This document shows positions 296 to 17,611 of a stretch of DNA of 25,615 nt, one piece after another. Position 1 is the stretch's first letter, and every line of letters starts with the position of its first letter. The notes under the pieces are model-generated. The model was not told the DNA's origin. It made no database searches and saw only the letters and a program-made list of their open reading frames with translations. Origin of the DNA: Bacteroidales bacterium (GTDB taxonomy: Bacteria > Bacteroidota > Bacteroidia > Bacteroidales > Bacteroidaceae); assembly GCA_004552195.1 (NCBI GenBank), contig SFPC01000041.1, positions 1 to 25,615 of the forward strand, in the 5' to 3' direction. A program made the translations under genes and the position numbers.

Positions 296-3200
296 TTAAA
301 GGCTCCAGTCTTCCTTCGTCTTGCGAACATACGAAGCGTAACGGCGCTGAGCGGCCTTCTTCGTTTCGTCGAAGAGTTCCTGTGCCTGTTCGGGCAGGGC
401 CTTCTTCAGCGAGAGGAAGCGTACTTCGTGGTCCAGATAATCCTGGAAGAGGTCCCAATCCGGCTCTTTGCTGTCGAGCGTGAAGGGGTTCTTGCCTTCG
501 GCTTCAAGAGCGGGGTTGTAACGCCACAAGTGCCAATAACCACAAGCCACGGCGCGGGCTTCTTCAGCCTGGCTGCGACCCATACCGCCCTTGATCTTCA
601 AACCGTGGTTGATACAGGGAGCATAGGCAATGATGAGTGAAGGTCCGTGGTAAGCCTCAGCCTCACGGATGGCCTTCAAACACTGGGCCTGATCGGCACC
701 CATAGCCACCTGAGCCACATAAACGTAGCCGTAAGTAGCCTGCATCAAACCGAGGTCTTTCTTCGTTACGCGCTTGCCGGCAGCGGCAAACTGGGCGATG
801 GCACCCACGGGCGTAGCCTTGGAGGCCTGACCACCGGTGTTGGAGTAAACTTCGGTGTCAAGTACGAGAATGTTCACATCCTCGCCGCTGGCCAATACGT
901 GGTCCAGACCGCCGTAACCGATATCGTAAGAAGCACCGTCGCCACCAATAATCCACTGGCTGCGCTTGGTGAGGAAGTGAGAGAGTTCCTCAAGCTGCTT
1001 GCAAACGGGGCATCCCTTGGCTGCGCTCTCCTTGATCAGCGGCTCCAGCTTGAGGGCTGCGGCACGGCTGGCTTCGGAGTCTTCTTGTGCGGCTATCCAT
1101 TCTTTGGCGGCTTCCTTGTACTCTTCACCGGCGTGGTCGGAAGCAATCATCTGCTCCAAGAGGCTCTGGATGCGTTTGCGCATCTTCTTGTTGGCCATCA
1201 CCATACCGAGACCGAACTCGCAGAAGTCTTCAAAGAGAGAGTTGGCCCAAGCAGGACCCTGCCCCTTCTCGTTCGTGGTGTAGGGAGTTGAAGGAATGGA
1301 ACCGGAATAGATTGAGGAGCAGCCCGTGGCGTTGGCAATCATCTGGCGGTCGCCGAAGAGCTGGCTGACGAGTTTCACATACGGAGTTTCGCCACAACCG
1401 GAGCAAGCACCGCTGAACTCGAAGAGCGGGGTAGCAAACTGCGAGTTCTTGGGGTTGAGCTTCACGTCAACCAAGTGTTGCTTGGTGGCCACGTTCTTCA
1501 CGCAGTAATCCCAGTTGGCAGCTTCGGGCATCTGGCCTTCCAGCGGCACCATTTCGAGGGCCTTGTTACCCTTGAGGCCGGGACATACATCCACACAGTT
1601 ACCGCAACCCAGACAGTCGAGCACATCCACCTGCTGAACGAAGTGCATGCCCTTCATGGCGGCAGGTGCTTTCATTTCGATGCTTTCGCCACCGAATCCC
1701 TGGAGCTCTTCATCAGTCAATACGAAGGGACGGATGGCAGCGTGGGGACATACAAAGTCGCACTTGTTACACTGGATACAGTTCTCCTTGTGCCAAACGG
1801 GAACGAAGGCAGCCACACCGCGCTTTTCGTAGGCGGCAGTACCCTGTGCCCAAGTACCGTCTTCGGAAACCTTGTAGGCACTTACGGGCAGGAGGTCGCC
1901 GTTCTGCGCATTGATGGGGCGTACCAAATCGGAGATGTAAGCGGGCTCGTCGCGCACCACTTTCTCGTCCTCGGGCAGGTTGGCCCATGCGGGGTCAATG
2001 ACTAACTGCTTGTACTCACCACCACGGTCAACGGCCTGGTAGTTCTTATCAACCACATCCTGGCCCTTCTTGCCGTAGCTCTTCACGATGAATTTCTTCA
2101 TCTGCTCTACGGCCAGGTCAACGGGAATTACCTCCGTGATGCGGAAGAAGGCAGACTGGAGAATGGTGTTCGTGCGGTTGCCGAGCCCGATTTCCTGGGC
2201 AATCTTGGTAGCGTTGATATAGTAAACGGTGATATTGTGCTCAGCAAAGTAACGCTTGGCGTTGTTGGGCAGGTTCTTGGCCAGTTCCTCACCCTCCCAG
2301 ATGGTGTTGAGCAGGAACGTACCGTTGTCGCGGAGGCCGCGCAACACATCGTACATGTGGAGATAAGCCTGAACGTGGCATGCCACGAAGTTCGGGGTCT
2401 TGATTTGGTACGTGGAGCGGATGGGAGTGTCGCCAAAGCGGAGGTGAGAACAGGTGAAGCCGCCCGATTTCTTCGAGTCGTAGGAGAAGTAAGCCTGGCA
2501 GTACTTGTCGGTATTGTCGCCGATAATCTTCACTGAGTTCTTGTTGGCACCTACCGTACCATCGGCACCCAGTCCGTAGAACTTGGCCTCGAAGATGCCT
2601 TCGCCGCCGAGTGCCTTTTCAGCCTCCAGGGGCAGCGAAGTAAAGGTAACGTCGTCCACGATGCCCACGGTGAAGTGGTCTTTCGGTTCGGGCAATGCGA
2701 GGTTGTCGTAAACGGAAATGATCATGGTCGGCGTAGTGTCGCACGAACCGAGGCCGTAACGGCCGCCCACGATGACGGGACGTTCTGCCTCGTTGTAGAA
2801 GGCATCCTTCACATCGAGGTAGAGAGGTTCGCCGCTGGCACCGGGTTCCTTCGTACGGTCGAGCACGGCAATCTTCTTGCAGGTCTTGGGCACGGCAGCG
2901 AGCAGGTGTTTCACGCTGAAGGGGCGATAGAGGTGAACGCTCACCATACCCACCTTCTGGCCCTGGGCGTTGAGGTAGTCAATGGCTTCGCGGGCAGCCT
3001 CCGTTACGGAGCCCATGCAGATGATGACGCGGTCGGCATCGTCGGCACCGTAGTAGCTGAAGAGCTTGTATTCGCGGCCGGTAATCTTGGAGATTTCAGC
3101 CATGTACTTCTCCACAATGGCGGGCACAGCATCGTAGTAGCTGTTGCAAACCTCGCGGTGGGCGAAGAAGGTTTCGGGGTTCTCGGCCATACCGCGGGCC

Positions 3201-3844
3201 ACGGGGTGTTCGGGGGTGAGGGCGCGACTGCGGAACTCGCTCACCTTGTCCATAGGCACGAGGGGACGGATAGCCTCCTGGTCCATCACTTCAATCTTCT
3301 GGTATTCGTGCGAGGTGCGGAAGCCATCGAAGAAGTTGATGAAGGGTACGCGGCTTTCAAGCGTAGCCAAGTGAGCCACGGCGGAGAGGTCCATCACCTC
3401 CTGCACGGAACCTTCGCAAAGCATGGCGAAGCCGGTCTGGCGGCAGGCCATTACGTCCTGATGGTCGCCGAAGATACAGAGAGAGTGGCTGGCCAGGGTA
3501 CGTGCAGACACGTGGAACACGCAGGGAAGCAGTTCACCTGCAATCTTATACATATTGGGAATCATCAGGAGCAAGCCCTGCGATGCCGTAAAGGTAGTGG
3601 TGAGGGCACCGGCCTGCAAAGAGCCGTGAACAGCTCCGGCGGCACCGCCTTCACTCTGCATTTCCTGCACTTTCACCGTGTCGCCGAAAAGGTTGATGCG
3701 GCCTTGAGCCGACCATTCGTCAACGTGCTCTGCCATGGGAGAGGACGGTGTGATGGGATAAATGGCAGCAACTTCAGAGAACATGTACGCAATGTGCGCA
3801 GCGGCCTGGTTGCCGTCACAAGTAATGAATTTCTTGTTTGCCAT
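296..3844 (-). CDS. nifJ: Pyruvate:ferredoxin (flavodoxin) oxidoreductase, single chain
   Basis: This cytoplasmic enzyme converts pyruvate and CoA to acetyl-CoA and CO2 and passes the electrons to ferredoxin or flavodoxin; it is central to anaerobic sugar breakdown. The 1182-residue length is normal for the fused homodimeric PFOR. The N-terminal transketolase-like pyruvate-binding domain begins MANKKFITCDGNQAAAHIAY with the YPITPSSPMAEH motif. Two ferredoxin-type 4Fe-4S motifs follow, CIQCNKCDFVCP (about residue 690) and CLGCGNCVDVCP (about 745). The proximal-cluster motif CSGCGETPY lies near 815 and the thiamine-diphosphate motif GGDGASYDIGYGGLDH near 965. All expected cluster cysteines appear present. 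It lies downstream of the ATPase gene on the same strand with a 188-bp gap, so it probably has its own promoter, although none fits the consensus well. Identification is firm. Confidence 0.97.
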   Translation of the reverse strand: MANKKFITCDGNQAAAHIAYMFSEVAAIYPITPSSPMAEHVDEWSAQGRINLFGDTVKVQEMQSEGGAAGAVHGSLQAGALTTTFTASQGLLLMIPNMYKIAGELLPCVFHVSARTLASHSLCIFGDHQDVMACRQTGFAMLCEGSVQEVMDLSAVAHLATLESRVPFINFFDGFRTSHEYQKIEVMDQEAIRPLVPMDKVSEFRSRALTPEHPVARGMAENPETFFAHREVCNSYYDAVPAIVEKYMAEISKITGREYKLFSYYGADDADRVIICMGSVTEAAREAIDYLNAQGQKVGMVSVHLYRPFSVKHLLAAVPKTCKKIAVLDRTKEPGASGEPLYLDVKDAFYNEAERPVIVGGRYGLGSCDTTPTMIISVYDNLALPEPKDHFTVGIVDDVTFTSLPLEAEKALGGEGIFEAKFYGLGADGTVGANKNSVKIIGDNTDKYCQAYFSYDSKKSGGFTCSHLRFGDTPIRSTYQIKTPNFVACHVQAYLHMYDVLRGLRDNGTFLLNTIWEGEELAKNLPNNAKRYFAEHNITVYYINATKIAQEIGLGNRTNTILQSAFFRITEVIPVDLAVEQMKKFIVKSYGKKGQDVVDKNYQAVDRGGEYKQLVIDPAWANLPEDEKVVRDEPAYISDLVRPINAQNGDLLPVSAYKVSEDGTWAQGTAAYEKRGVAAFVPVWHKENCIQCNKCDFVCPHAAIRPFVLTDEELQGFGGESIEMKAPAAMKGMHFVQQVDVLDCLGCGNCVDVCPGLKGNKALEMVPLEGQMPEAANWDYCVKNVATKQHLVDVKLNPKNSQFATPLFEFSGACSGCGETPYVKLVSQLFGDRQMIANATGCSSIYSGSIPSTPYTTNEKGQGPAWANSLFEDFCEFGLGMVMANKKMRKRIQSLLEQMIASDHAGEEYKEAAKEWIAAQEDSEASRAAALKLEPLIKESAAKGCPVCKQLEELSHFLTKRSQWIIGGDGASYDIGYGGLDHVLASGEDVNILVLDTEVYSNTGGQASKATPVGAIAQFAAAGKRVTKKDLGLMQATYGYVYVAQVAMGADQAQCLKAIREAEAYHGPSLIIAYAPCINHGLKIKGGMGRSQAEEARAVACGYWHLWRYNPALEAEGKNPFTLDSKEPDWDLFQDYLDHEVRFLSLKKALPEQAQELFDETKKAAQRRYASYVRKTKEDWSL

Positions 3845-3956
3845 AATTATTGTTTGATAGAATAAGGATTGTTGTGTGCTTGATAACGGCCTTTCCGCAA
3901 CGAAGAAAAGGCTCTATCTTTTTCCATTGCCGCCGTGTTGGTTGCGGAGGCCGGAT

Positions 3957-3981
3957 TTTTCTGCCGTTGTGGAACAGAAAA
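3957..3981 (-). terminator. Weak hairpin after the ATPase gene
   Basis: TTTTCTG (3957-3963) can pair with CAGAAAA (3975-3981) around an 11-base loop, about 50 bp beyond the ATPase stop and upstream of nifJ. There is no clear T tract on the minus strand, so termination here is only a guess. Confidence 0.25.
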
Positions 3982-4032
3982 GCCCCATCTGCCCCCTTGG
4001 CGGGAGCCGATCAGGCTATCCTGTTGTTCAGA

Positions 4033-5217
4033 CTAATAGAGGAAACCGAAGAGCCACAGAGGAATTTCGTTTTCCCGGCCGATGTCTGTATTGTATTTCA
4101 CGTAAACCGTATCGGCTGTGGTGCGCACGCGGCGTGACTTGTCGCATACACAGATATTAGTGGCATTGTTGATACGGAAGAGGCCGTTACGCCGGCCTTT
4201 GTTCACCGTGTGGTGCCGCCACAGGCAGTTTACGAAGAACGTTTCCATGATGTGTTGTTCCGACATGCTCGGATCATACACGGCGTGCATCAGGTTGGCA
4301 TCGTGAAGGTAGATAGCGGCCGGTTTTTTGGGGAACGTTTCTTTCTCACGGTGAACCATATTGATAAGGCGTGTTTCTTCGAGATACTTCAGATAGTTCA
4401 TCACCGTGGCGCGCGAGGTTCCGATTTCCTGTGCCAGCTTGCTCACATTGGGCGACGAGGGGTCGCCAATAGCCAAGAGGTAGAGCAGTTTCTTGATGCG
4501 CGAAAGGTACTTCAGCTCAATTTGTTTGTTGAGCAGGAGGTCTACCTCTATCATGTTGTTCATGGCTTTGAGCAGCGCCTCCGTGAAGTTGTGATTTTCC
4601 AAGAAGAAGGGGTAATAGCCGTGTTGCAGATAATCCTGGAAGTACTGCCAAGGATGCACGCGGGGCAGGATAAAGCGCAGAATTCGCTCATGATCGGCCA
4701 ACAGCTGGTCGAGCGTGTATGCCTCGAAGTTCTCATGCGTCACGAGATTGATATACTCTCGGAAAGAGAAGCCGTGTAACACATACGTGCGGCTCAACGA
4801 GGAAAGTTCGCTATCGTCCTCTACCTCGCCGGTGTTGACTGAAGTGGTGGTGTAAACAATGCGCAGGTAAGGATACTTGTGGTAACATTCCACCAATTGC
4901 TCTCTCCAATCGGGCAACTTAAATGCCTGATCGACGAGCAACACAGAACCACCCTCCTCCACAAATCTGCCGGCAAAGTCCACAATACCGTGAGCCTGGA
5001 AGTAGAAGCTGTTGAGATTGATATAGAGACATTGACGCAACTGCGGATCAAAGTTCTCTTTGGCATACTGTAAGAGGAAGGAAGTCCGTCCCACGCCACG
5101 CGGGCCCTTGATGCCAATCATACGGTAGCTCCAATCTATCGTATCCATCAGCGAGCGGCGTACCGGAGCATTGAAATGCTCCATCAAATAGGCGTGCGAG
5201 ATAAAAAACGTTTCCAT
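4033..5217 (-). CDS. AAA_14-like (DUF4143-type) ATPase with altered Walker motifs
   Basis: This 394-residue protein has the layout of the AAA_14/DUF4143 group common in Bacteroidetes: a P-loop domain (about 15-230) followed by a winged-helix segment (about 265-300, SKLAQEIGTSRATVMNYLKYL) and a C-terminal region. The P-loop reads GPRGVGRTS (residues 38-46), with Arg44 where the catalytic Lys normally stands. The Walker B stretch reads VLLVDQAFKLPDW (92-104), with Gln97 where the family has Glu (compare the usual xxxDExxKxPxW). Both changes should weaken ATP hydrolysis, so this may be a nucleotide-binding but hydrolysis-poor member. The biological role of the family is mostly unknown. It is divergent from the RiPP operon and has its own promoter, so a functional link is not shown. 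Confidence 0.8.
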   Translation of the reverse strand: METFFISHAYLMEHFNAPVRRSLMDTIDWSYRMIGIKGPRGVGRTSFLLQYAKENFDPQLRQCLYINLNSFYFQAHGIVDFAGRFVEEGGSVLLVDQAFKLPDWREQLVECYHKYPYLRIVYTTTSVNTGEVEDDSELSSLSRTYVLHGFSFREYINLVTHENFEAYTLDQLLADHERILRFILPRVHPWQYFQDYLQHGYYPFFLENHNFTEALLKAMNNMIEVDLLLNKQIELKYLSRIKKLLYLLAIGDPSSPNVSKLAQEIGTSRATVMNYLKYLEETRLINMVHREKETFPKKPAAIYLHDANLMHAVYDPSMSEQHIMETFFVNCLWRHHTVNKGRRNGLFRINNATNICVCDKSRRVRTTADTVYVKYNTDIGRENEIPLWLFGFLY

Positions 5218-5277
5218 TGAATGTTGTTTTTCTTGGATAAAAACACCCGCCGGGACAATCTGTCAACGAATGCGAAG

Positions 5278-5309
5278 CAAAGATACGAAGTTGTTATTTA
5301 ACTTGCAAA
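5278..5309 (-). promoter_or_regulatory. Bacteroidetes-type promoter of the ATPase gene
   Basis: On the minus strand TTTG (complement of 5306-5309) is followed after 20 bp by TATCTTTG (complement of 5278-5285). This matches the Bacteroidetes -33/-7 consensus (TTTG, 19-21 bp, TAnnTTTG). The predicted transcript start is near 5271, giving a leader of about 50 nt before the ATG at 5217. Confidence 0.75.
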
Positions 5310-5482
5310 GCAAACTTGACATTTTTTCTTATTTCTCCGACTTTAATCTATACTGTTGCCGCGCCCGACGTTTTTATTCCAAGTGTTTTACAGACAATTG
5401 CGAAACCGGCTGTCGAACATGGAGGAAAACACGCTAACTAACGACGAGGCTCCGCGCCAAATGTTAAAACGGAAAGAGCCGA

Positions 5483-5514
5483 TTTGGCAGTTAAAAATGA
5501 AAATCTTACCTTTG
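5483..5514 (+). promoter_or_regulatory. Consensus promoter about 500 bp before the RiPP operon
   Basis: TTTG (5483-5486), 20 bp, TACCTTTG (5507-5514) fits the Bacteroidetes consensus very well. The predicted start near 5521 falls at the base of the hairpin at 5522-5558. It could drive a long-leader transcript into the RiPP operon or a very short RNA. Confidence 0.6.
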
Positions 5515-5521
5515 ACGTGTC

Positions 5522-5563
5522 AAAGGGAGGAAACTGTCAGCTGCGGGTTCCTCCTTTTCTTTT
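5522..5563 (+). terminator. Terminator-like hairpin at the predicted 5' end of a transcript
   Basis: AAAGGGAGGAA (5522-5532) pairs with TTCCTCCTTTT (5548-5558), giving 11 pairs including one G-T, and is followed by CTTTTG. It resembles an intrinsic terminator, but it sits immediately after a consensus promoter. It may be an attenuator, a 5'-protecting hairpin, or the end of an unseen short transcript. A second small hairpin (GAGTTGT 5635-5641 with ACAACTC 5646-5652) lies further on. Confidence 0.45.
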
Positions 5564-5927
5564 GCCTTCATTTTCCAGCGAAACAACGGCCAGATGCGGC
5601 AAAAATAGTCCTGGATTTGATTTTCCTACTCGCCGAGTTGTAAAAACAACTCCTGCTTCTCTCTTTCCAACTCCTCATTCTCTACCTGCTACTCCCTTTT
5701 CCGGCAACGCCAATCAAGGCTCCGCACCTTACATAAGGTTAAAAATGTTAATGTGCTCTTTGGATGAAAGGACCCTATCGGCCGTATGGCCAACGACAAG
5801 CCGAAGCTATCGGACGGTGCCGGTTGTAGACATTCCGAGAGGAAAGATAGGATTGAGGAAAGCACAAGTTATACGCGCTAAAACCAAAAAAAAATACAAG
5901 AAAACTTACGCATCCAAACAAATAACG
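5564..5927. other. Intergenic leader region with no convincing gene
   Basis: Apart from the small hairpin at 5635-5652 I see no gene here. One plus-strand frame stays open through the whole region and runs into the candidate precursor at 6015. Its translation lacks protein-like character and contains the predicted promoter at 5928, so it is treated as non-coding leader DNA. Confidence 0.5.
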
Positions 5928-5935
5928 TATATTTG
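5928..5935 (+). promoter_or_regulatory. Likely -7 box of the RiPP operon promoter
   Basis: TATATTTG matches the TAnnTTTG -7 consensus and lies about 80 bp upstream of the candidate precursor ATG, giving a leader of roughly 73 nt. The -33 element is weak: TTAC stands about 18 bp upstream instead of TTTG. A poor -33 box may mean that an activator is needed. Confidence 0.5.
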
Positions 5936-6014
5936 CGGCAACAACTTACGCAAAACAAAGAAGATTCCGAAACGCTTGAAAGGGAGTAGGAGACATCCTT
6001 TTATCTTATCTGCT

Positions 6015-6128
6015 ATGACACAGAATGAAAACCTGTACAACGAGCTCGATTCTCGTTTGGACATCACCGAAGCCAACGCTGAATGGTGTGATCATTGCAG
6101 TCAGGGTCATCCCGCACCGCTCGACTGA
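6015..6128 (+). CDS. Candidate RiPP precursor peptide, 37 residues
   Basis: A short frame starts at ATG 6015 (MTQNENLYNELDSRL...) and ends in WCDHCSQGHPAPLD. The first 23 residues are acidic and polar, like a leader for enzyme recognition. The last 14 hold the only Trp (W24), both Cys (C25, C28) and both His (H27, H32), all good targets for YcaO and radical SAM chemistry. It lies 24 bp ahead of the first radical SAM gene and on the same strand, where RiPP precursors usually sit. There is no double-glycine, signal peptide or TIGR04149-type leader. A purine-rich stretch (GGGAGTAGGAG) lies rather far upstream of the ATG. It is too short for a certain call; the alternative is a small regulatory peptide or a chance frame. 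I do not recognise its family. Confidence 0.7.
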   Translation: MTQNENLYNELDSRLDITEANAEWCDHCSQGHPAPLD

Positions 6129-6152
6129 TAGGTAACAAAGAGGCTCACCATC

Positions 6153-7292
6153 ATGACCATGCAACGAAACATCTACGTAACGATTAAGGGAACGCTACGC
6201 TGCAACCTGGCTTGTCAGTACTGCTATGGCAGGGACAACCACGCTATCGGCGCACAAATGACGGAAGAAGAAATCCACCAAGCCCTGACCTTTACGCGAG
6301 ACTATGCTTTGGAAACGCACGCCACGTCGTTGACGTTGTGCTGGCATGGCGGTGAGCCTCTTCTCTTGTCGTCTGTTCTGCCTGCTTACATGGAGGAGGC
6401 GAACAGACTTTTTTCTGCCATCGGCGTAAAGGTGCACCATGGACTTCAGACCAACGCCGTGGCTCTCCTACCCCGCACCTTCGACTTCATCAAGCAGTAT
6501 CTCGGCGGACATGTCGGCGTGAGCCTCGACCTGTTCAGCTCTTACCGCACCTTCCCCGACGGAACCCTGTCCACACAGCTCGTGGTGGACAACATTGACC
6601 GGGCTTTGGCGGCCGGCATCAGCTGTGGGGCCATCAACCTCGTTACCCGCGACAACCTTCACCGCATCCCCGACATTTACAACTTCTACAAGCAGCGGCG
6701 CATGAACGTGCGCTTGGCAAGGGTCTTCCCCATCCATCACGAAGCGACGGAGCATAATCCCATGTATCTCTCCGACGAGGAATTTGCCCAAGCCATGACG
6801 GACTATTTCGACCTGTGGGCCAACGATTCGCAACCGGCCCACAACCAGGACATCGTTAATCTGATAGGCGACCTGCTCTTGGGGAAACCCTCAGTGTGCT
6901 TCCGCGAACGGGAGTGCCACAAAAGATATCTCGCGCTTAGTCCCGGAGGCGAAATCTTCACTTGCGCAGAGTTTGACGTGCCGGAGTCGGTGGTGGGCAA
7001 CTTCCTGACGCAATCAGCGCACGACTTCGTTCGCTCCGACAGCCGCGACAAGCTGGCTCTCCGGGCTCCCGTGCCACAACAGTGTGCAGCATGCAAATTT
7101 CTCCGGATATGCCACGGCGGATGCTTCCGCGAGCGTTTCATGTTGGGCTATCCTTATCGCTGCAAGAGCAATTATCTGTATTGGGAGCACGTGGTGAGAT
7201 GGTTGGAAGCGAAGGGAGCCGGCCTTTTCCTGTTGGCCGACAAACCGGCCGACGAGGCGCGGAAAATACTCAAACAAATTTTCAAACCCTGA
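6153..7292 (+). CDS. Radical SAM/SPASM peptide maturase (rSAM1)
   Basis: This 379-residue enzyme starts almost directly with the radical SAM core: the CX3CX2C motif CNLACQYC (C17, C21, C24) binds the SAM 4Fe-4S cluster, and HGGEP (65-69) is the GGE-type SAM contact. The C-terminal third carries a complete SPASM domain: CHKRYLALSPGGEIFTC, then CAACKFLRICHGGC (CX2CX5CX3C), then YRC. This should hold two auxiliary clusters. Size and lack of an N-terminal recognition domain resemble peptide maturases such as GrrM/OscB/XyeB or the anaerobic sulfatase-maturase group. The start at 6153 is preceded by an AAAGAGG site; an ATG two codons later (6159) is possible. As the first enzyme after the precursor it probably installs a carbon-carbon or thioether crosslink, which is inference. 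Confidence 0.88.
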   Translation: MTMQRNIYVTIKGTLRCNLACQYCYGRDNHAIGAQMTEEEIHQALTFTRDYALETHATSLTLCWHGGEPLLLSSVLPAYMEEANRLFSAIGVKVHHGLQTNAVALLPRTFDFIKQYLGGHVGVSLDLFSSYRTFPDGTLSTQLVVDNIDRALAAGISCGAINLVTRDNLHRIPDIYNFYKQRRMNVRLARVFPIHHEATEHNPMYLSDEEFAQAMTDYFDLWANDSQPAHNQDIVNLIGDLLLGKPSVCFRERECHKRYLALSPGGEIFTCAEFDVPESVVGNFLTQSAHDFVRSDSRDKLALRAPVPQQCAACKFLRICHGGCFRERFMLGYPYRCKSNYLYWEHVVRWLEAKGAGLFLLADKPADEARKILKQIFKP

Positions 7293-7298
7293 CACACC

Positions 7299-8663
7299 AT
7301 GATGCGCCTACTCATCGTCATCCCTTGGTCACCCTTCCATGTGGGGCTGAAGGATTTCGATTTCGCACAAATGCCAGAGCGTGCGCCGGAGAGCATGGTG
7401 GCCCTGGCCACCTTCCTGCGCGAAAAGGGAGCCGAAGTGGCTGTGGCGGATATGCAGTGCCACTTGCTTCAATGCCAAGGCGACACGGCGCAGGCTCTGC
7501 AACGGCTTTACGCGCAATGCAACGAGTGGAAACCGGAGGTAATCGGTTTCTCCTTTTTTACTGCCCGCCTCAAGCCGGCAGCAGACATCTTTGAAGGACT
7601 GAGAAATCACTTTCTTTCCCACCGCTTGCCCCTGCCGCTGATGATAGCCGGCGGGGTACACGCCACGCTCCTGCCCCAACTGACATTCCAGCAAATACCT
7701 TTCGACGCGCTCATTGTGGGCGAAGGGGAAATGCCGCTGTGGCAACTCCTTCGGGGGGAGGACATGAACGAAATTCCGGGAGTGGTATTGCCGGGGGCGA
7801 ACCGCATCACGCCCCCCCGGGTGGTGGAACACTTAGACGAGCTGCCGCCGGCCGACTGGTCGCTCATTGATTTCCCGTTCTACACCCAGCCGGCGCATCT
7901 CATCTCTTCGGGACGGCTCGACGCCGTGTTGCCCGTCACCTTTGGGCGAGGCTGTAATTATCGGTGTAACTTCTGTGCACACGCCTGCTTTCTTAAACCG
8001 CGCTGCCACTCGGCCGAGGGTTTTCTCCGCAAGTTGGATGCCTATGCCGCACAGTGCCACGTCAACACCTTCCTGTTGCAGGACAGCTCCATAGGCAATT
8101 ATAAAAAGGAGTGGGCAGCGGTGTGCCAAGCGCTCATTGCGCGTGGAACGCCTTACCGCTGGTGGGCCAACCTCCGGGCGAACCAGGCCGACAGGGAGTT
8201 TCTCGAACTGCTCAAACGGGCGGGCTGCATCAAACTCTTCTTTGGCTTTGAATCAGGCAGCCAACGGGTGCTCGACCGCATGAACAAGCGCATCACGGTG
8301 GAGCAGTGCCGCGAAACGGCTCGCCTCTGCCACGAGTTAGACATCCCTTTCTACGCCAGCTTCATCGTCAACTATTTCGGAGAAACGGAGGCAGACCTCG
8401 CACTGACCGAACAGCTCATCCTTCAGACGCGCCCCACTTCCGTAGCGGTGAACACTTTCTCCCCCATCCCGGGCTCAAAGGACTACGATGCCCACCGCGA
8501 TGAAATTGTGCCGCACCTGAACAGCTTGGACGACTGGACCATGCTGGGATGTCTCTATTCCCAACTCTACTTCAGCCACTTGCCCAAAGAACGCTTCGAC
8601 TATTGGCGCCAAAGGCTGAGAAACTTACGCCAAACCATCAATGCGCATGAAGATTCTGACTGA
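7299..8663 (+). CDS. B12-binding domain radical SAM enzyme (rSAM2)
   Basis: The 454-residue protein has an N-terminal Rossmann-like cobalamin-binding domain (about 1-170) with the typical GGVHATLLPQ stretch (118-127) and VGEGE (140-144). The radical SAM core follows, with CNYRCNFC (C219, C223, C226) and GFESGSQRVLDRMNK. This is the class B arrangement, most of whose studied members methylate unactivated carbon or phosphorus; others do rearrangements or use B12 differently. Here C-methylation of the peptide is the likeliest job, but the sequence does not prove it. It begins 6 bp after rSAM1 and overlaps rSAM3 by 23 bp, which suggests translational coupling. No SPASM domain is present. Confidence 0.85.
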   Translation: MMRLLIVIPWSPFHVGLKDFDFAQMPERAPESMVALATFLREKGAEVAVADMQCHLLQCQGDTAQALQRLYAQCNEWKPEVIGFSFFTARLKPAADIFEGLRNHFLSHRLPLPLMIAGGVHATLLPQLTFQQIPFDALIVGEGEMPLWQLLRGEDMNEIPGVVLPGANRITPPRVVEHLDELPPADWSLIDFPFYTQPAHLISSGRLDAVLPVTFGRGCNYRCNFCAHACFLKPRCHSAEGFLRKLDAYAAQCHVNTFLLQDSSIGNYKKEWAAVCQALIARGTPYRWWANLRANQADREFLELLKRAGCIKLFFGFESGSQRVLDRMNKRITVEQCRETARLCHELDIPFYASFIVNYFGETEADLALTEQLILQTRPTSVAVNTFSPIPGSKDYDAHRDEIVPHLNSLDDWTMLGCLYSQLYFSHLPKERFDYWRQRLRNLRQTINAHEDSD

Positions 8664-10017
8664 AGGACACCACGAACGCACGGAGTGCCCCGAAGGAACG
8701 GCGGTCAAACTTTCCTGCTGGAACGACCTGACACCGTTGTCCGAAGGAAAGGTGGTGGTGTTCAACACGCTGCAACGCAATGCCGTGCTGCTCACAACCG
8801 ACACCTACGATGCACTCAAACAGGCCGACCTGTCGGGTAGCCTAACCGTCGAAGGGGAGGAGAAAAAACGGCTTTTCGCTCTGGGCATCCTGGTTCGCCG
8901 CGACAAGGACGAGCACGCGGCATGGAACAAGGCTTATCGGGAAGCGAAACTCGACATGAGCGACTTAGACATCACGGTGGTGCTGACGGAACAGTGCCAA
9001 ATGGGGTGTGTCTATTGCTTTGAGGGATTGGAAAAGGCACACCGCGTCATCACGGACGACACCGTGGAACGCCTTCTCCAATTTATCCGGCTTCACGAAG
9101 AAGGGTTGCGCAGTCTCCGCCTCACGTGGTTTGGCGGAGAACCGCTGTTGGCCTACGAACCCATGCGAAAGCTCTCGGAACGGGCCATTGCCTACTGCAA
9201 GGAGCACGGCATCGTTTACCGAAGCGACATCACCACCAACGGTTTCGCGCTCAACAAACAAAGAATTACCGAAATGGTGGAGCAATGGAAGATAAGGACT
9301 TTCATCATCACCGTGGACGGCACGGCACAAGTACATAACCAACGCCGACCGCTGCGGGGCGGAGGCGGAACGTTCGACACCATTTGGGAAAACGTGAAAC
9401 GGCTCATGCAGCACGACGTTTTCGTGCTCCTGCGCATCACCATCGACAAACGAAACGCCGATTCAGTGCCCGAACTCCTCGACCTCATGCACGCCGAGCT
9501 CCCGGCGGACAAAATACAGGTGGCCTTCTGCCGCACCTTCGACATGGCGTTCACGCCAAAGGCTTCTACACCTTATATATATAGTGAGCGGGAATTTGCG
9601 GAGGTGGAGTGGAAGCTGATGCAGTATGCCCACAGCCTCGGCATCTTCCGTTACCGTTTCCCCCATGCCGCCCCACGCGGCGGTTGCCTGCGCAACGGCG
9701 ATCTGGTCGTCGGTCCCGACGGCGAAATCTTCAAATGCCTCGACACCATCGGCGACACGAGGCGGATAATCGGCCACCTGATGCAACCTTCGGCCGATGC
9801 CGAACCGGAATGGCTTGTCCGGTGGCGCGAATGGCAGCCGGACAACCGACCGGAGTGCCGATGCTGTGCGCTCCAGCCGCTCTGCAACGGCGGATGCCCG
9901 CACAACGCACTCTTTAGCGACAAGAAGCACGGCTCGGACCTGCCCTGCCCGGACTGGAAGGCGAACTACAAACGACAAATCATCGAACTGGCTCATGCAA
10001 ACGACGAAAGCATATAA
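8641..10017 (+). CDS. Radical SAM/SPASM peptide maturase with N-terminal RRE-like region (rSAM3)
   Basis: The first roughly 95 of 458 residues form a small domain with a hydrophobic pattern (KVVVFNTLQRNAVLLTTDTY, then KKRLFALGILVRRDKDE) like the winged-helix recognition elements that grip RiPP leaders. The radical SAM motif CQMGCVYC (C119, C123, C126) and FGGEP follow. The C-terminal SPASM domain is complete: CLRNGDLVVGPDGEIFKC, then CRCCALQPLCNGGC (CX2CX5CX3C) and a late Cys. ATG 8641 and 8647 are both possible starts; either overlaps the rSAM2 end. It overlaps the YcaO gene by 23 bp. The role is likely peptide crosslinking or leader recruitment. The RRE reading rests on pattern only. Confidence 0.87.
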   Translation: MRMKILTEGHHERTECPEGTAVKLSCWNDLTPLSEGKVVVFNTLQRNAVLLTTDTYDALKQADLSGSLTVEGEEKKRLFALGILVRRDKDEHAAWNKAYREAKLDMSDLDITVVLTEQCQMGCVYCFEGLEKAHRVITDDTVERLLQFIRLHEEGLRSLRLTWFGGEPLLAYEPMRKLSERAIAYCKEHGIVYRSDITTNGFALNKQRITEMVEQWKIRTFIITVDGTAQVHNQRRPLRGGGGTFDTIWENVKRLMQHDVFVLLRITIDKRNADSVPELLDLMHAELPADKIQVAFCRTFDMAFTPKASTPYIYSEREFAEVEWKLMQYAHSLGIFRYRFPHAAPRGGCLRNGDLVVGPDGEIFKCLDTIGDTRRIIGHLMQPSADAEPEWLVRWREWQPDNRPECRCCALQPLCNGGCPHNALFSDKKHGSDLPCPDWKANYKRQIIELAHANDESI

Positions 10018-11704
10018 AGCGGCTTCCCCGCAACAAACCGTTGACCGCATCCGGCAAATCATTGCCCGCCTCAGCCTCCCCGTGAAGGAGCAACTGTTAG
10101 GCGATGGGCGGCTGTGCTGCTCGTGCCGCATATCTATCACACGCACAGACGACTTCTCCATCGGCACCAACGGCAAAGGCATGACGCAGGACTACGCCTT
10201 GGCAAGCGGCTACGCGGAGTTTATGGAGCGTTACCAACACCGCGTCATCGTTTACCCCAATCCCGCAGCGGAAGGGGCGGCTTGCCGCTTCTTCCCCGAC
10301 GAAACGGATTTCCGATGGCCGACCAAGGAAAAAATTGTGGAGCAGGTGAAGAAATTTTCTCCCTCCACCTTGCCCGCAGAGGGCATTGAGGCCGACAGCT
10401 TGGAGGGGAAGGAAATTCCGTTCTTCCACCTGAACAGCGGAAAGGTGGTGCCCGTTCCCTACTCGCTCATCCGCTGGGTCAGCGGAAGCAATGGCATGAG
10501 CGCAGGCAACATTCTGGAAGAAGCACTCATCCAGGGATTTTGCGAAATCTTTGAACGCCACGCACTGCAGCAGCTCTATTTGCGCCAACTCGTGCCGCCC
10601 ACCATTCCGGAGGCGGAATTTGAAGGCACAGACATACTCCGGCGGTTGCGGACCATGCAGGCAGAACACGGCATGGACTTTTCCATCAAAGACCTTTCGC
10701 TGGGCGAGGGTTTTCCCGTGCTGGGCTTGCTCGTCTTCAGCCCCGACCATGCAAAATATATCCTTCAGTTAGGCGCAGACCTCAGTCCGGTGATTGCGCT
10801 GGAGCGTTGTTTCACAGAAATCTTCCAGGGCTACACGCCCTCCACGCTCCGCTTTGAAAACCAAGTGAATGCGTGCGAGAAGCCCGACCTTTTCAACGAA
10901 TTCAAGCGCAGCCTGACGTACGGACGCGGCCGGTTGCACCGCGAGTTCTTCACTTCCGCGCCAAGCTATGCCTATTGCGGACACACGAGCATCCCCGTGG
11001 GACGCAATTTCCGCGAGGATTTGAACAACATCTGCCAATGGGTGATGCAAAAGGGGTATGATATTTACCTGCGCGACAATTCGTTCCTCGGCTTCCCCGC
11101 CACGCACCTCGTGGTGCCGGGCCTGTCGGAAATTGACAAGACTTTCTGCCGGCTGAACCGCCGCATCCGCCACATGACGCTCACGGAGAACCGTCCGAAC
11201 CCGCTGTTTCGCCTGCGGGAACTGACGGCGGAAACGGCTCCCCTGCTGACGCGCTACATTGAGCAGACCGACGGCGAAGCCATCGACCTCTTCACGCGCA
11301 ACACGCACCCCGGCAACCACGTGAACCGCCGCTTGCTGCTCGTACTCCTCCATCTGCGGCAAAACCACCGGGAGGCGGCGCGCGAACAGCTCGAACGTTA
11401 CTGCGAAGAGCAACGGGCACAAAACCGAATGGTGAAGCCATTGCTGCAAGCCCTGCTCCTGCGCCTCGGAGGCCGCCCGGACAACCAACCGGATGAGCGG
11501 TTGCTCCAAGCGGCCGACGATTTGCTGGCCCGACCGGAACGGATTTTCCACGCCATCCCCGTGCCGGAATGTTTCCACTGCGACCGCTGCGCCCTCAGTC
11601 GGGGATGCCGTTATCCGTTGCTACGCGAAATCGAAGAGATTACGCAAACGGCCATGCGCACTTATCCATTCAGACAAAATCACCTTGCTTCGCTTTTCTC
11701 ATGA
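9995..11704 (+). CDS. YcaO-family enzyme, E. coli YcaO type, with extra C-terminal Cys cluster
   Basis: YcaO enzymes use ATP to activate peptide amides and make azolines, thioamides or amidines. From ATG 9995 (MQTTKAYKAASPQQ) the product has 569 residues, near the length of E. coli YcaO, and key blocks match that protein: TNGKG (58-62), ALASGYAEFMER with E75 and E78, SNGMSAGN (165-172), then EALIQGFCEIFER with E184, E187 and R188. HLVVPGLSE (371-379) also fits. These are the expected Mg-ATP ligands, so it should be active. The C-terminal 170 residues are helical, as in E. coli YcaO. Two oddities are CCSC (41-44) and CX2CX2CX5C near the end (C526, C529, C532, C538), which could bind metal or an Fe-S cluster. 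No E1-like or TfuA partner gene is seen. The frame is open further upstream, but that part overlaps rSAM3 and looks non-coding. The last 4 bp overlap rSAM4. Confidence 0.9.
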   Translation: MQTTKAYKAASPQQTVDRIRQIIARLSLPVKEQLLGDGRLCCSCRISITRTDDFSIGTNGKGMTQDYALASGYAEFMERYQHRVIVYPNPAAEGAACRFFPDETDFRWPTKEKIVEQVKKFSPSTLPAEGIEADSLEGKEIPFFHLNSGKVVPVPYSLIRWVSGSNGMSAGNILEEALIQGFCEIFERHALQQLYLRQLVPPTIPEAEFEGTDILRRLRTMQAEHGMDFSIKDLSLGEGFPVLGLLVFSPDHAKYILQLGADLSPVIALERCFTEIFQGYTPSTLRFENQVNACEKPDLFNEFKRSLTYGRGRLHREFFTSAPSYAYCGHTSIPVGRNFREDLNNICQWVMQKGYDIYLRDNSFLGFPATHLVVPGLSEIDKTFCRLNRRIRHMTLTENRPNPLFRLRELTAETAPLLTRYIEQTDGEAIDLFTRNTHPGNHVNRRLLLVLLHLRQNHREAAREQLERYCEEQRAQNRMVKPLLQALLLRLGGRPDNQPDERLLQAADDLLARPERIFHAIPVPECFHCDRCALSRGCRYPLLREIEEITQTAMRTYPFRQNHLASLFS

Positions 11705-13071
11705 CCCGGAATTACTTGCTCGACCCCAACACTTGCCGACGCATTTTCCCCGACCTGACAGTCGTGGAGCACCAGGTGAGCCACGTGCGTGCCGTGCTGA
11801 CGGGACGGGAAAAGGCATTGGTGGACCGGCTCGACGTTTACTTTCCCCAAGCGGTGGACGAAACGGACACTGCGGCGGCCGAAAAACTGCGAAGCCTGTG
11901 GTTCATCAGGACAGCAGACGACCCGGCACACGACTTCACGTATGCCGACAAGCGGGAAACGGAAGCACATTTTTCCCTCGTTGAAGTTGACGCCACGACT
12001 CCGCCACCCCGGCCGTGGCTCACGACACTTGAAATCATCGTCACCTCGCGTTGCAACGAACGATGCCTGCACTGTTACATCCCCAACGGCGAGAAAGACG
12101 CCGCTGTGGTGCTCGACAAGGAAACGGTCAAGGAGGCACTGCGCCAATTCCGCGAGCTGAACGGCATGAAGGTGGTGTTCTCCGGCGGAGAGCCGTTGCT
12201 CCATCCCGACATCTGGGAACTCATGTCTTACTGCCGCGAGCTGGATTTAATGGTGCTCATCAACAGCAACCTGCTCACGCTCACCGCAGCCCAAGCCCGG
12301 AAGTTGAAAGAGCTGCGGGTGTTCAACGTGCAAGTGTCGCTCTACTCCACCCTCCCGGCCGTACACGACGGCATCACACAGCGCAAAGGCTCGCACGAAC
12401 GCACTCGCCGCAGCATTGAACTCCTCATCCAGGAAAATGTGCCCGCACTCATTTCCTGCCCGGTCATGCAGCAGAACCACCGAGAGGTGGCTGCGCTGAA
12501 ACGGCAGGCGGACCTATGGGGACTGGACTGCTATTTCGACTACATCATGATGGCCCGGCACGATGGGAATGCGGACAATTTGGCCACGTGTCTCACTCCC
12601 GAGGAGACAAAGGCGGTGGTACGCTGCGTAGTGCAGGGCAATCCGCTCTTTATGGAGGCCATCCGCTCCGCAGCCACGGAGGAGGAGCTGCTTCAAAAGC
12701 ACTTTGCACGCCGATGGCACGCCTGCCAAATCATGTCGAACCGATTGGGCCTCGATGCCGACGGCACGCTCTATCCCTGTCCGGGCTGGAACGGACTGTC
12801 CTTAGGCAATATCCGCGAAACGTCGCTCCGCGAGGTGTGGACGACCTCATCGCTCACCCAAGAGCTGCGCGCCACAGACCCACACCGCTTTGAGCGCTGC
12901 CAAACCTGCCAGCTGCACAATTTCTGCGACATGTGTCCCGTTTACAACTTCAATGAGAACGGCGCAGTCGACAAGGTCTGCACCCGCTTCTGCACCGCCG
13001 CCCGACTGTTGCGCGAGGTGGTGCTCGAACTCTGGACCGAGCAACAAACCGCCGACGTTTCGCAAGGCTGA
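11701..13071 (+). CDS. Radical SAM/SPASM protein, PqqE-like (rSAM4)
   Basis: ATG 11701 overlaps the YcaO stop as ATGA and gives 456 residues; the frame extends upstream, but that stretch lies inside the YcaO gene. The first 105 residues hold a possible winged-helix recognition region (LTGREKALVDRLDVYFP, then AAEKLRSLWFIRTADD). The core starts at about 108 with CNERCLHC (C118, C122, C125) and SGGEPLLHPDIW, as in PqqE and heme-d1 or AlbA-type maturases. The SPASM domain reads LDADGTLYPCPGWNG, then CQTCQLHNFCDMC (CX2CX5CX2C), then CTRFC. It is the last gene of the overlapping operon. Likely it modifies the same peptide, target unknown. Confidence 0.87.
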   Translation: MTRNYLLDPNTCRRIFPDLTVVEHQVSHVRAVLTGREKALVDRLDVYFPQAVDETDTAAAEKLRSLWFIRTADDPAHDFTYADKRETEAHFSLVEVDATTPPPRPWLTTLEIIVTSRCNERCLHCYIPNGEKDAAVVLDKETVKEALRQFRELNGMKVVFSGGEPLLHPDIWELMSYCRELDLMVLINSNLLTLTAAQARKLKELRVFNVQVSLYSTLPAVHDGITQRKGSHERTRRSIELLIQENVPALISCPVMQQNHREVAALKRQADLWGLDCYFDYIMMARHDGNADNLATCLTPEETKAVVRCVVQGNPLFMEAIRSAATEEELLQKHFARRWHACQIMSNRLGLDADGTLYPCPGWNGLSLGNIRETSLREVWTTSSLTQELRATDPHRFERCQTCQLHNFCDMCPVYNFNENGAVDKVCTRFCTAARLLREVVLELWTEQQTADVSQG

Positions 13072-13182: not shown

Positions 13183-14241
13183 ATGAACACCGAACTACTC
13201 CAAGCCCTTTGCCACACAACCGGCATCAGCGGCTACGAACAAGAAGCTACCGACTGCTTTCTTGACGCTTTGCGCCCCTGCGCAGCCGAATGCAGCACGG
13301 ACCTCATGGGCAACGCCATGGTATTCCTCGACCCGCCTACCCCGCACCGCCCACGCATCATGCTCGAAGCCCATGCGGACGAAATAGGTATGCAGATTAT
13401 CCACATCAGCGACAGCGGCTACCTCTACTTCCGCCCCAACGGGGGCATAGACGAGCAGTGTGTGCCCGGCACGCAGGTCGTCGTCATCACACGCAAGGGG
13501 GAACGACTGCCGGGCGTCATCGGCAAACGCCCCATCCACCTCATGACGGTGGAAGAGCGCAAATCCACCTTCAAGCTCCACCAACTATGGATTGACACCG
13601 GCTTAGAGCCGAAAGAACTCAAGGAGTTGGTGAACGTGGGCGACGCTGTCTGCGTACAGACCAACCTCCGTTTTCTCGGACCTCACCGCGTAACCGGTAA
13701 GGCCCTTGACAATCGCATCGGCCTTTTCGTGGTGGGCGAGGCACTCCGCCGTCTGGCCAACCAGCCCAGGCCTGCGGGCAACATTGTAGGCGTGGCCACT
13801 GTACAGGAGGAAGTGGGCTGTCGCGGTGCGCTCGTGGCGGCCAACGCACTCAACCCGGAAATCAGCCTGACCGTCGATGTGGATTTCGCCACCGACGTGC
13901 CGGACTGCCCGGCCTCGCACTACGGGAAAATATCCTTGGGCGGAGGTGTGGTCATCCAGCGCAATCTCGACTGTCATCCGCAGTTGAGTCTTCAGCTCGA
14001 AGAGTTGGCTCGTCAACACGACATCCCTTATCAAATCTCGGCCCGTCCGCACGCCAGCGGCGGCAATAATGCCTCACGTATCCAGCTGGCGCAAAACGGC
14101 ATCCGCACCGTTGTGCTCAGCATCCCCTGTCGCTATATGCACACCCCCGTGGAAGTATGCGACTTGCGCGATGCCGAAGCCGCCATCCGGCTGATTGAAG
14201 CGTTTTGCGCGCACTGCCAAACGCCGGAAGCTTCACTTTGA
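13183..14241 (+). CDS. M42-family metallo-aminopeptidase
   Basis: This 352-residue protein fits the M42 (glutamyl aminopeptidase/FrvX/TET) family, cytoplasmic di-metal aminopeptidases that form large oligomers. The expected residues are in place: H64 and D66 in EAHADEIGM, bridging D176 in ALDNRIG, catalytic E209 and ligand E210 in TVQEEVGCRGA, D232 in VDVDF, and H320 in RYMHTPVEV. The usual GGTDA stretch reads GGNNAS (293-298), a small departure. It follows the RiPP operon by 111 bp and precedes diaminopimelate dehydrogenase by 29 bp, all on the same strand. It could trim the modified peptide's leader or simply be a general peptidase; spacing favours neither strongly. Confidence 0.88.
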   Translation: MNTELLQALCHTTGISGYEQEATDCFLDALRPCAAECSTDLMGNAMVFLDPPTPHRPRIMLEAHADEIGMQIIHISDSGYLYFRPNGGIDEQCVPGTQVVVITRKGERLPGVIGKRPIHLMTVEERKSTFKLHQLWIDTGLEPKELKELVNVGDAVCVQTNLRFLGPHRVTGKALDNRIGLFVVGEALRRLANQPRPAGNIVGVATVQEEVGCRGALVAANALNPEISLTVDVDFATDVPDCPASHYGKISLGGGVVIQRNLDCHPQLSLQLEELARQHDIPYQISARPHASGGNNASRIQLAQNGIRTVVLSIPCRYMHTPVEVCDLRDAEAAIRLIEAFCAHCQTPEASL

Positions 14242-14270: not shown

Positions 14271-15176
14271 ATGACAGACAAAAAAATCCGTGCAGCCATT
14301 GTGGGCTACGGCAACATTGGCCGTTACACGCTCCAGGCACTTCAGGCTGCCCCCGACTTTGAAATTGCCGGCGTAGTGCGCCGCCGGGGTGCAGAAAACA
14401 AACCCGCTGAGCTCGAACCTTACCCCGTTGTGAGCGACATCCGCGAACTGGACCACGTGGACGTGGCTATTCTCGCCACCCCCACCCGTAAAGTGGAGGA
14501 ATATGCGAAGGAAATCCTCAGCCTTGGCATCCACACCGTCGACAGCTTCGACATCCACAGCCAAATCCTCGCTTTGCGCAGCAGCCTCGGCGCGGTGGCC
14601 AAGGCGCACGACGCGGTGAGCATCATCTCCGCCGGTTGGGATCCCGGTTCGGACTCTGTGGTGCGCACCCTCCTGCAAGCCATCGCCCCGAAGGGCATCA
14701 CGTACACCAACTTCGGACCCGGTATGTCCATGGGCCACACTGTGGCCGTCAAAGCCATTGACGGTGTAAAGAAAGCCCTGTCTATGACCATCCCCACCGG
14801 CACCGGTATTCACCGCCGCATGGTCTACATTGAGCTGGAGGAGGGACATGATTTCGCCACCGTGGCTGCCGCCATCAAGGCCGACCCTTATTTTGCCTCG
14901 GACGAGACGCACGTGAACCTGGTGCCTTCGGTCGACGATGTCATCGACATGGGCCACGGCGTGAACCTGACCCGCAAGGGTGTGAGCGGCACGACGCAGA
15001 ACCAGCTCTTCGAGTTCAATATGCGCATCAACAACCCCGCGCTCACCGGCCAGGTGCTCGTCTGCACCGCCCGTGCCGCCATGCGCCAGCAGCCGGGTTG
15101 CTACACCATGGTCGAGGTGCCCGTCATCGACCTCCTGCCCGGCGACCGCGAGGAGCATATAGCTCATCTTGTATAG
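14271..15176 (+). CDS. ddh: meso-Diaminopimelate D-dehydrogenase
   Basis: The enzyme (EC 1.4.1.16) makes meso-diaminopimelate from tetrahydrodipicolinate, ammonia and NADPH in one step, for lysine and cell wall. The 301-residue product has a Rossmann start ([18 protein letters not shown], nucleotide-binding GxGxxG as GYGNIG), then the family-typical blocks [40 protein letters not shown] and the tail [22 protein letters not shown]. The AT-rich TTTATAAAAT before the ATG is a usual Bacteroidetes initiation context. It probably shares a transcript with the M42 gene. Its terminator lies at 15456-15485, beyond an inserted palindromic element. Confidence 0.95.
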
Positions 15177-17159: not shown

Positions 17160-17574
17160 GGGGTGCGCCCCACGTCAGGGTGGGAGTAGGAGATATGAGG
17201 TTATAAGGTTACTGCTTGAAGGGAATGTTCCGACATTCACCCTTCAAGCAGTAACTGTATATCCCGAAAGAAGAGCCCAACATCCGGGAAGAAACAATGA
17301 AATGAAAAAAGAGTTCAGCATTAGTTGAGCTTACTTTGGTTCCAAAGCCCTGGAAGTGCCCCGTGCATTTCTGGGGCTGTTATTGTGCCTGAACGCTAAG
17401 CAGCATATACACGCCGGGAAGTTCGTAACACCGGAGAGCGGCGAGGGGCAGACGGGAAGTGGGGAGGGGAGCTGTCAGGGAGAAGGTGAAACGGTGTGAC
17501 GAGAAGCGGCAAAGGCAACCCCGCCCTTCACAATTTCTTCATTTTTGCGAAACGCGGCTGCAACACCCGCCCCC
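17160..17574. other. Intergenic region with palindromes, no gene seen
   Basis: The main structure is a long hairpin at 17208-17254: GTTACTGCTTGAAGGG plus AATGT pairs with ACATT plus CACCCTTCAAGCAGTAAC across a 2-base bulge and a tiny loop. No T tract follows it. Shorter inverted words (TCCCG/CGGGA near 17263-17290) lie downstream. The long hairpin may stop or stabilise the YitT transcript or be a REP-like unit. Confidence 0.5.
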
Positions 17575-17582: not shown

Positions 17583-17611
17583 CACCCGAAAACAAGCGAA
17601 CGAACTCATCT

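What the first reader, a model, noticed from the sequence alone, without database searches (positions are those of the whole stretch)
6015..13071. Compact operon with four radical SAM enzymes and a YcaO acting on one tiny peptide: probable undescribed RiPP pathway
Seen: a 37-codon gene and five modification-enzyme genes with gaps of 24 and 6 bp and then overlaps of 23, 23 and 4 bp, which implies coupled translation. The enzymes are three SPASM-type radical SAM proteins, one B12-binding radical SAM protein and one YcaO. Known: each family modifies ribosomal peptides in characterised systems (crosslinks, C-methylation, azoline or thioamide formation). Inference: the product is heavily modified in a core of about 14 residues. 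I know of no characterised pathway with exactly this set.
Basis: partly seen in the sequence, partly recalled or inferred. Interest (0 to 1): 0.95.

Follow-up and report, generated by a model that had tools for sequence, protein, structure and literature searches.

The report
Undescribed five-enzyme peptide modification cassette
A 37-residue peptide gene sits in one operon with four radical SAM enzyme genes and a YcaO gene; the set recurs, with a nearly unchanged peptide end, in seven other Bacteroidales genomes (one lacks one enzyme), so it is likely an undescribed pathway that would turn the peptide into a small, heavily altered molecule, which a neighbouring peptidase is predicted to release.

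Summary
In detail: coordinates, spacings and enzyme families check. Peptide and enzymes form a co-inherited cassette. A scan of 84,980 species genomes gave 7 loci with an orthologous YcaO; 7 of 7 carry the peptide, three SPASM-type radical SAM genes and YcaO, and 6 of 7 the B12 radical SAM gene. The peptide ends in a conserved core, [ED]-W-C-D-x-C-x-[EQ]-G (8 of 8 loci; W-C-D-x-C-x-x-G in 27 of 30 database relatives), under purifying selection. In Bacteroides, DUF805b leaders also precede other peptide/radical-SAM operons (10 of 30 loci fetched, 2 of them this cassette, against about 0.1 expected); five of the others include an M42 gene. No known RiPP family tested fits. The chemistry, the product and its role are untested.

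The parts
5957..5992 (+). Degenerate DUF805b-type RNA leader (Rfam RF02914) 22 nt before the peptide start codon
   Evidence: Rfam 15.1 bits, gathering cut-off 35.6, E 0.19 in 601 bases: below threshold here. Same position as copies over threshold in L001, L002, L003, L005, L006, L007 (42.4-49.4 bits). 19 alignment columns invariant over 8 leaders. Stem 3 of 4 pairs in the window.
6015..6128 (+). Precursor peptide gene, 37 aa
   Evidence: 60% mean pairwise identity over 8 loci; 30 database relatives.
6015..6080 (+). Predicted leader part of the precursor (residues 1-22)
   Evidence: Less constrained: pN/pS 0.45 for codons 1-21; Q3, R14, L15 and E19 invariant over 8 loci. The boundary is inferred.
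6081..6125 (+). Predicted core EWCDHCSQGHPAPLD (residues 23-37)
   Evidence: W, C, D, C, G invariant over 8 loci; W-C-D-x-C-x-x-G in 27 of 30 database proteins; pN/pS 0.14 for codons 22-37.
6153..7292 (+). B: SPASM radical SAM enzyme (anSME/DynA-like)
   Evidence: PF04055; TIGR04085 44.5 bits, DynA model 157 of 450 bits; anSME 4k37 E 2.9e-21.
7299..8663 (+). C: B12-binding radical SAM enzyme; absent in L001
   Evidence: PF02310 + PF04055; OxsB, 9ccb and AprD4 nearest in PDB; 6 of 7 genomes.
8641..10017 (+). D: SPASM radical SAM enzyme with an N-terminal domain aligned to that of CteB and TigE
9995..11704 (+). E: YcaO enzyme with a C-terminal four-Cys site (C526, C529, C532, C538)
   Evidence: PF02624 157.5 bits; S, E, Q and R residues of the ATP/Mg motifs (recalled) and the four Cys invariant in 29 sequences; model pLDDT 89.6, best PDB match E. 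coli YcaO.
11701..13071 (+). F: SPASM radical SAM enzyme (NirJ/PqqE/SkfB-like)
   Evidence: PF04055 + PF13186; SkfB 6efn E 2.6e-17.
13183..14241 (+). G: M42 (tetrahedral) aminopeptidase, added to the finding
   Evidence: PF05343 263 bits; TET aminopeptidase 1y0r E 1.6e-56; next to F in 5 of 7 loci and the only match at E <= 1e-15 in those 5 genomes; no match in the other 2.

Best explanation
The window holds a conserved cassette of a 37-residue peptide gene, three SPASM-type radical SAM genes, a B12-type radical SAM gene, a YcaO gene and an M42 aminopeptidase gene, which is likely a biosynthetic pathway for an undescribed ribosomally made, modified peptide (RiPP). Predicted working: the N-terminal half of the peptide is a leader bound by the CteB-like N-terminal domain of enzyme D; B, D and F then form radical-made crosslinks or other changes on the Trp-Cys-Asp-x-Cys core; YcaO activates a backbone amide with ATP to make an amidine, azoline or thioamide; the B12 enzyme adds an optional change, most simply a C-methyl group, since one relative does without it. 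The M42 aminopeptidase would then eat the leader from its N-terminus until the modified core stops it. The product is probably a small, nearly invariant molecule that acts inside the cell or leaves without a dedicated exporter, more like PQQ or a metal-binding cofactor than a varied bacteriocin. Shown: gene set, order, conservation, selection on the core, leader RNA in relatives. Inferred: every chemical step, leader binding, peptidase role, product role.
For: Co-conservation in 7 of 7 loci, C in 6, G in 5. Enzyme distance matrices correlate at r 0.91-0.99, with the peptide at 0.73-0.90. Core pN/pS 0.14 against 0.45 in the leader. L005 (Bacteroides) and L007 (Muribaculaceae) cluster together with support 100 in four of four gene trees, so the cassette moves as a block (groups). 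CxxxCxxC cysteines invariant in B, C, D, F. D aligns over its whole length with CteB and TigE. M42 is cassette-only in 5 genomes. Unrelated tiny peptides stand before other multi-radical-SAM operons with M42 under the same leader RNA.
Against: No product, mass or transcript was seen. D's leader-binding role rests on a fold match; Pfam finds no RRE-type domain in the N-termini of D or F at E <= 1, and F was not modelled. M42 is missing in L003 and L004 (and from their genomes at E <= 1e-15), so it cannot be required everywhere. In the window M42 lies 111 bp after F, with a DAP dehydrogenase gene 29 bp further on, so it could be read as a neighbour. Flanking ORFs were listed, not all annotated: the window has a TonB-dependent receptor at 17459-20380, and RND-type efflux ORFs (by eye) lie over 4 kb away on the other strand in L001 and L007, so export is not excluded.
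Confidence: 0.75

Rival explanations
1. An exported antimicrobial or signalling RiPP whose exporter is encoded elsewhere. The same maturation occurs, but the product acts on other cells.
For: The published Bacteroidales YcaO/radical SAM clusters BGC6-8 carry C39-peptidase exporters (PMC10352776 section 13). Two DUF805b-led radical SAM operons fetched here, L081 and L082, carry C39 ABC exporters. Patchy, horizontally moved distribution is usual for competition genes.
Against: No C39/ABC exporter or GG leader in the cassette. The core is nearly invariant between families of bacteria, whereas bacteriocin cores usually vary (recalled).
Confidence: 0.2
2. A scaffold pathway: the peptide is only a carrier, and one modified amino acid or di/tripeptide is cut out by M42, as for PQQ or pearlins.
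For: Aminopeptidase conserved next to the enzymes; no exporter in the cassette; strongly conserved W-C-D-x-C.
Against: Five enzymes acting on a single excised residue would be unusual, and the conservation runs through G-H-P to the end in one subtype.
Confidence: 0.2
3. The 37-residue ORF is not a substrate but a regulatory leader peptide for the downstream genes.
For: It lies 22 nt behind a cis-regulatory RNA and directly before the enzymes.
Against: Amino-acid-level selection strongest at the Cys/Trp end; other DUF805b-led radical SAM operons have unrelated Cys-rich peptides in the same place; in L008 a Cys-rich peptide ORF lies between the radical SAM and YcaO genes.
Confidence: 0.05

Closest known systems
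Itf pathway of Bacteroides thetaiotaomicron (ItfB YcaO amidine, ItfD Trp-Ile crosslink; passages of PMC11002830)
   Same: Bacteroides RiPP with radical SAM plus a YcaO fused to a Cys/Fe-S-type domain; the YcaO here also ends in four invariant Cys.
   Different: Itf has one radical SAM enzyme, a C39 exporter, a TonB receptor and an Ile-Thr-Phe end; here four radical SAM enzymes, M42, no exporter in the cassette, W-C-D-x-C core.
Chryseobasin pathway (ChrA/H/I/E/P; passages of PMC10214503 and PMC11002830)
   Same: Short Cys-containing C-terminal core and an M42 peptidase gene in the cluster (ChrP, not yet characterised there).
   Different: Uses an MNIO enzyme and partner, no radical SAM or YcaO.
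CteB / TigE type radical SAM RiPP maturases
   Same: Enzyme D matches them over the whole length, N-terminal domain included.
   Different: Those systems have one maturase and different precursors (recalled).
Bottromycin pathway (recalled; only a search listing seen)
   Same: YcaO, B12 radical SAM methyltransferases and an aminopeptidase act together.
   Different: Core at the N-terminus with a follower, two YcaO proteins, M17 peptidase, exporter, no SPASM radical SAM enzymes (recalled).
Aminopyruvatides (ApyD; passages of PMC11002830)
   Same: ApyD is the best NCBIfam match of C (117 of 750 bits); a C-terminal Asp also ends the type I core here.
   Different: Needs MNIO and P450 enzymes, absent among the window proteins scanned; type II peptides mostly end in Tyr.

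Membership tests
RiPP (general) | Short precursor gene beside modification enzymes, co-conserved | tested here: met
   7 of 7 loci.
RiPP (general) | Leader/core division with a recognition domain in an enzyme | tested here: inconclusive
   Selection differs between the halves; D's N-terminal domain aligns with CteB/TigE; no Pfam RRE hit.
RiPP (general) | Modified peptide detected | not testable with these tools
   Needs mass spectrometry.
Itf-type amidine RiPP | C39 exporter and TonB receptor in the cluster | tested here: not met
   None in the cassette A-G; a TonB receptor lies at 17459-20380, beyond other genes.
Itf-type amidine RiPP | C-terminal Ile-Thr-Phe or Phe end of the precursor | tested here: not met
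   Ends in -PAPLD, -Y or -D.
Azol(in)e TOMM with E1-like partner | Partner protein gene beside YcaO; PxPxP end of YcaO (recalled) | tested here: not met
   No partner among the nine proteins scanned; E ends in ...NHLASLFS.
Thioamide RiPP with TfuA | TfuA gene beside YcaO | tested here: not met
   No TfuA among the nine window proteins scanned.
Aminopyruvatide / MNIO RiPP | MNIO enzyme gene | tested here: not met
   None among the nine proteins scanned.
GG-leader, C39-exported Bacteroidales RiPP | Gly-Gly leader and C39 exporter | tested here: not met
   No GG in 8 of 8 precursors before the core; no C39 protein in the cassette.
NCBIfam radical SAM maturase families (e.g. TIGR04463, DynA, NirJ2) | Score over the equivalog cut-off | tested here: not met
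   D 298 of 525, B 157 of 450, F 107 of 500, C 117 of 750 bits (best 25 models shown for B, D, F).
DUF805b RNA (RF02914) | Covariance-model score over the gathering cut-off | tested here: inconclusive
   Met in 6 of 6 relatives scanned; not met in the window (15.1 of 35.6 bits). L004 found by pattern only.

The most novel reading that the evidence does not exclude
The cassette belongs to an unrecognised class of Bacteroidales RiPPs: tiny Cys-rich peptides, two or more radical SAM enzymes, an M42 aminopeptidase and no exporter, all translated behind the orphan DUF805b RNA leader. The class makes small intracellular cofactor-like or metal-binding molecules, and the leader RNA senses the product or the state it answers.
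Probability: 0.3. Interest if true: 0.92.

Novelty: new variant of a known kind. Interest (0 to 1): 0.78.

Why it matters
Five modification enzymes from three families on about 15 residues is a dense enzyme-to-residue ratio, and the near-invariant core suggests one defined product with one function rather than a varied toxin. The link to DUF805b gives an orphan regulatory RNA a concrete, testable set of target operons, and the M42 gene suggests how such peptides are freed without an exporter. The species carrying it include cultured Bacteroides (B. timonensis, B. faecalis), so it can be tested.

Tried and rejected
Own genome of the window: not held, so taxonomy, genome-wide copies and paralogues of the window itself are untested. 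Plasmid collection with YcaO: 46 records, none covering 80% of the query, all under 60% identity: no plasmid home found. Viral contigs: 2 distant matches only. Broad sampling at E <= 1e-120: 1 of 393 (order) and 1 of 399 (family) genomes, both times the query genome itself; 4 of 397 Muribaculaceae, three of them the known loci and one distant; Bacteroides genus 3 of 158 orthologues plus two genomes with distant matches. So it is rare and patchy. These scans use patterns or first-look filters, so counts are lower bounds. Bacteroides-type promoter upstream of the peptide: none of 8 loci has TTG-N17-22-TAnnTTTG; dropped. Amidine versus azoline versus thioamide: not decided; ItfB was not among the genomes searched. 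Idea dropped as unsupported: that the invariant Asp is the YcaO/RimO-type target; sister operons L077 and L078 carry UPF0004 methylthiotransferase-type genes on a C-D-M-C peptide, but the window has none. Enrichment of radical SAM genes behind DUF805b (P 1.5e-17 for 10 of 30, 1.1e-13 for 8 of 28) assumes uniform placement, uses the 30 best-scoring copies fetched out of 51 over the cut-off, and density from 10 chosen genomes; 20 of the 30 have no radical SAM-like ORF in reach. Stem support (129 of 144 cells paired, 2000 shuffles at most 112) is biased because 28 of the 36 elements were found with a model containing that stem; the window copy pairs at 3 of 4. pN/pS used 6 of 8 loci (type I peptides), leaving out the close L003/L004 pair. 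Of the 30 database peptides, 3 break the motif: P0141 lacks Trp, P0148 is frame-shifted, P0150 has a deletion. For YcaO relatives only 120 of 438 hits were listed.

Papers: PMC10352776 passages and section 13; PMC11002830 passages; PMC10214503 passages; all others as search listings only. That this pathway is not in print rests on ten searches of an open-access library without most subscription papers; the paper that described DUF805b (Weinberg and others 2017, recalled) was not held.
Full report
What is there. The finding's coordinates hold exactly. A 37-codon ORF at 6015-6128 is followed by B (6153-7292), C (7299-8663), D (8641-10017), E (9995-11704) and F (11701-13071). Pfam and NCBIfam give radical SAM for B, C, D and F, a B12-binding domain for C, YcaO for E, and SPASM by TIGR04085 for B and D and by PF13186 for F. 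No listed equivalog model reaches its cut-off, so NCBI's library has no name for these enzymes (25 of 63, 65 and 73 matches shown for B, D and F). A sixth gene belongs to the set: G, an M42 aminopeptidase at 13183-14241.

Is it a unit? One scan of 84,980 species genomes with a YcaO alignment gave 23 confirmed relatives; 7 are 50-59% identical and 12 more lie at 27-32% in other settings. In the 7, tblastn and ORF reading show B, D, E and F in order in 7 of 7, C in 6 of 7, G in 5 of 7, and the peptide upstream of B in 7 of 7. The L001 genome has no C at E <= 1e-15. The five genomes with G next to F have no other M42 match at E <= 1e-15, and the two without it have none at all, so G is a dedicated member where present. 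Genes overlap or nearly touch from B to F in 8 of 8 loci, except for an 83-bp gap in L001 where C is missing and gaps of up to 23 bp between E and F. Distances of the enzymes correlate at 0.91-0.99. The trees put Bacteroides L005 with Muribaculaceae L007 at support 100 in each of four genes and in their concatenation, against the species grouping: the cassette travels as a block.

The peptide. Over 8 loci W, C, D, C and G of the core and Q, R, L and E of the front half are invariant. A profile search gave 30 database proteins, 27 with W-C-D-x-C-x-x-G intact. There are two subtypes: 37-residue peptides ending mostly in GHPAPLD and 35-residue peptides ending mostly in Y or D. In the six type I loci pN/pS is 0.14 for the core codons and 0.45 for the leader codons: the protein sequence, and its end most of all, is under selection.

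The leader RNA. Aligning the DNA before the peptide showed a block conserved in 8 of 8 loci, ending 20-28 nt before the start codon. Rfam names it DUF805b (RF02914), a cis-regulatory family without known function: 42.4-49.4 bits in 6 of 6 relatives scanned, cut-off 35.6. The window's copy is degenerate, 15.1 bits, E 0.19, and is called by position and shared letters only. In 157 Bacteroides genomes 61 have a match at E <= 0.001 and 35 one over the cut-off; 14 control genomes have none. I fetched 30 copies. 10 have a CxxxCxxC protein in reach downstream; two are this cassette and eight are confirmed Radical_SAM proteins. Chance expectation from 240 radical SAM matches in 48.0 Mb is about 0.11 of 30. 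Twenty of 30 lead other genes, so the RNA is not a RiPP mark as such.

Sister operons. Wider stretches around the eight show that five carry an M42 gene with two to five radical SAM genes: L077 and L078 (peptides ending GPCDMCWGDLSL, with three UPF0004/methylthiotransferase-type radical SAM genes each), L079 and L083 (peptides ending CCDVFGYGCSCACNNS, with a B12 radical SAM gene), and L080 (peptide GCCDCFGGGCRCND, with a B12 radical SAM gene). L079's M42 is cut by the contig end; L078's M42 was assigned by BLAST only. L084 has an M18 peptidase; L077 has one too. L081 and L082 instead have GG-type peptides with C39 exporters and no M42 match. I saw no exporter in the five M42 operons, from ORF listings, not full annotation. 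Outside this group, L008 (Parabacteroides) has radical SAM, Cys-rich peptide, YcaO and M42 in a row without a DUF805b-like pattern.

Reading. The simplest account is a leader-guided RiPP pathway whose product is short, strongly fixed and freed by an aminopeptidase. A fixed core, no exporter in the cassette and a dedicated peptidase point to an intracellular or cofactor-like product rather than a bacteriocin, but that last step is weak: flanks were not fully annotated, and the cassette's patchy spread (3 of 158 Bacteroides, 3 of 397 Muribaculaceae) is also what competition genes show. It is a new variant of a known kind: known enzyme families in a combination I could not find described (ten searches, listed under Tried and rejected), tied to an orphan RNA.

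Noticed in passing
L077 (oriented 1798-10884), L078 (1700-9488): DUF805b-led operons with peptides ending GPCDMCWGDLSL, two further radical SAM genes, three UPF0004/MiaB-RimO-type methylthiotransferase genes each and M42; one passes the RimO equivalog cut-off (372.6 of 356.95 bits). Methylthiotransferases in a peptide operon would be new to me.
   Followed up: partly
L079, L080, L083: DUF805b-led operons with peptides ending CCDVFGYGCSCACNNS or GCCDCFGGGCRCND, two to five radical SAM genes, a B12 radical SAM gene and M42.
   Followed up: partly
L008 8553-12932: Parabacteroides PH5-46: radical SAM, 44-residue Cys-rich peptide, YcaO (31% identical) and M42 in a row; relaxase-like and integrase-like ORFs upstream by eye.
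   Followed up: partly
Genome G1197 contig C1, 1503025-1517318: Nine DUF805b matches in one genome, four of them within 14 kb.
   Followed up: no
L047-L076: DUF805b copies stand mostly about 20 nt before a start codon, also of non-RiPP genes (for example 269-271-residue proteins in L065 and L070), which hints at translation-level control.
   Followed up: partly
L001 8567-8649: The B12 radical SAM gene is cleanly absent in B. timonensis although its peptide core equals that of L006, which has the gene.
   Followed up: yes
L012, L015, L016: YcaO genes about 29% identical behind GG-leader peptides, with TonB-receptor-like and C39-exporter-like ORFs by eye and no radical SAM gene seen.
   Followed up: no
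window 14271-15176: Diaminopimelate dehydrogenase-type gene 29 bp after M42 (PF16654), possibly cotranscribed by accident of insertion.
   Followed up: no
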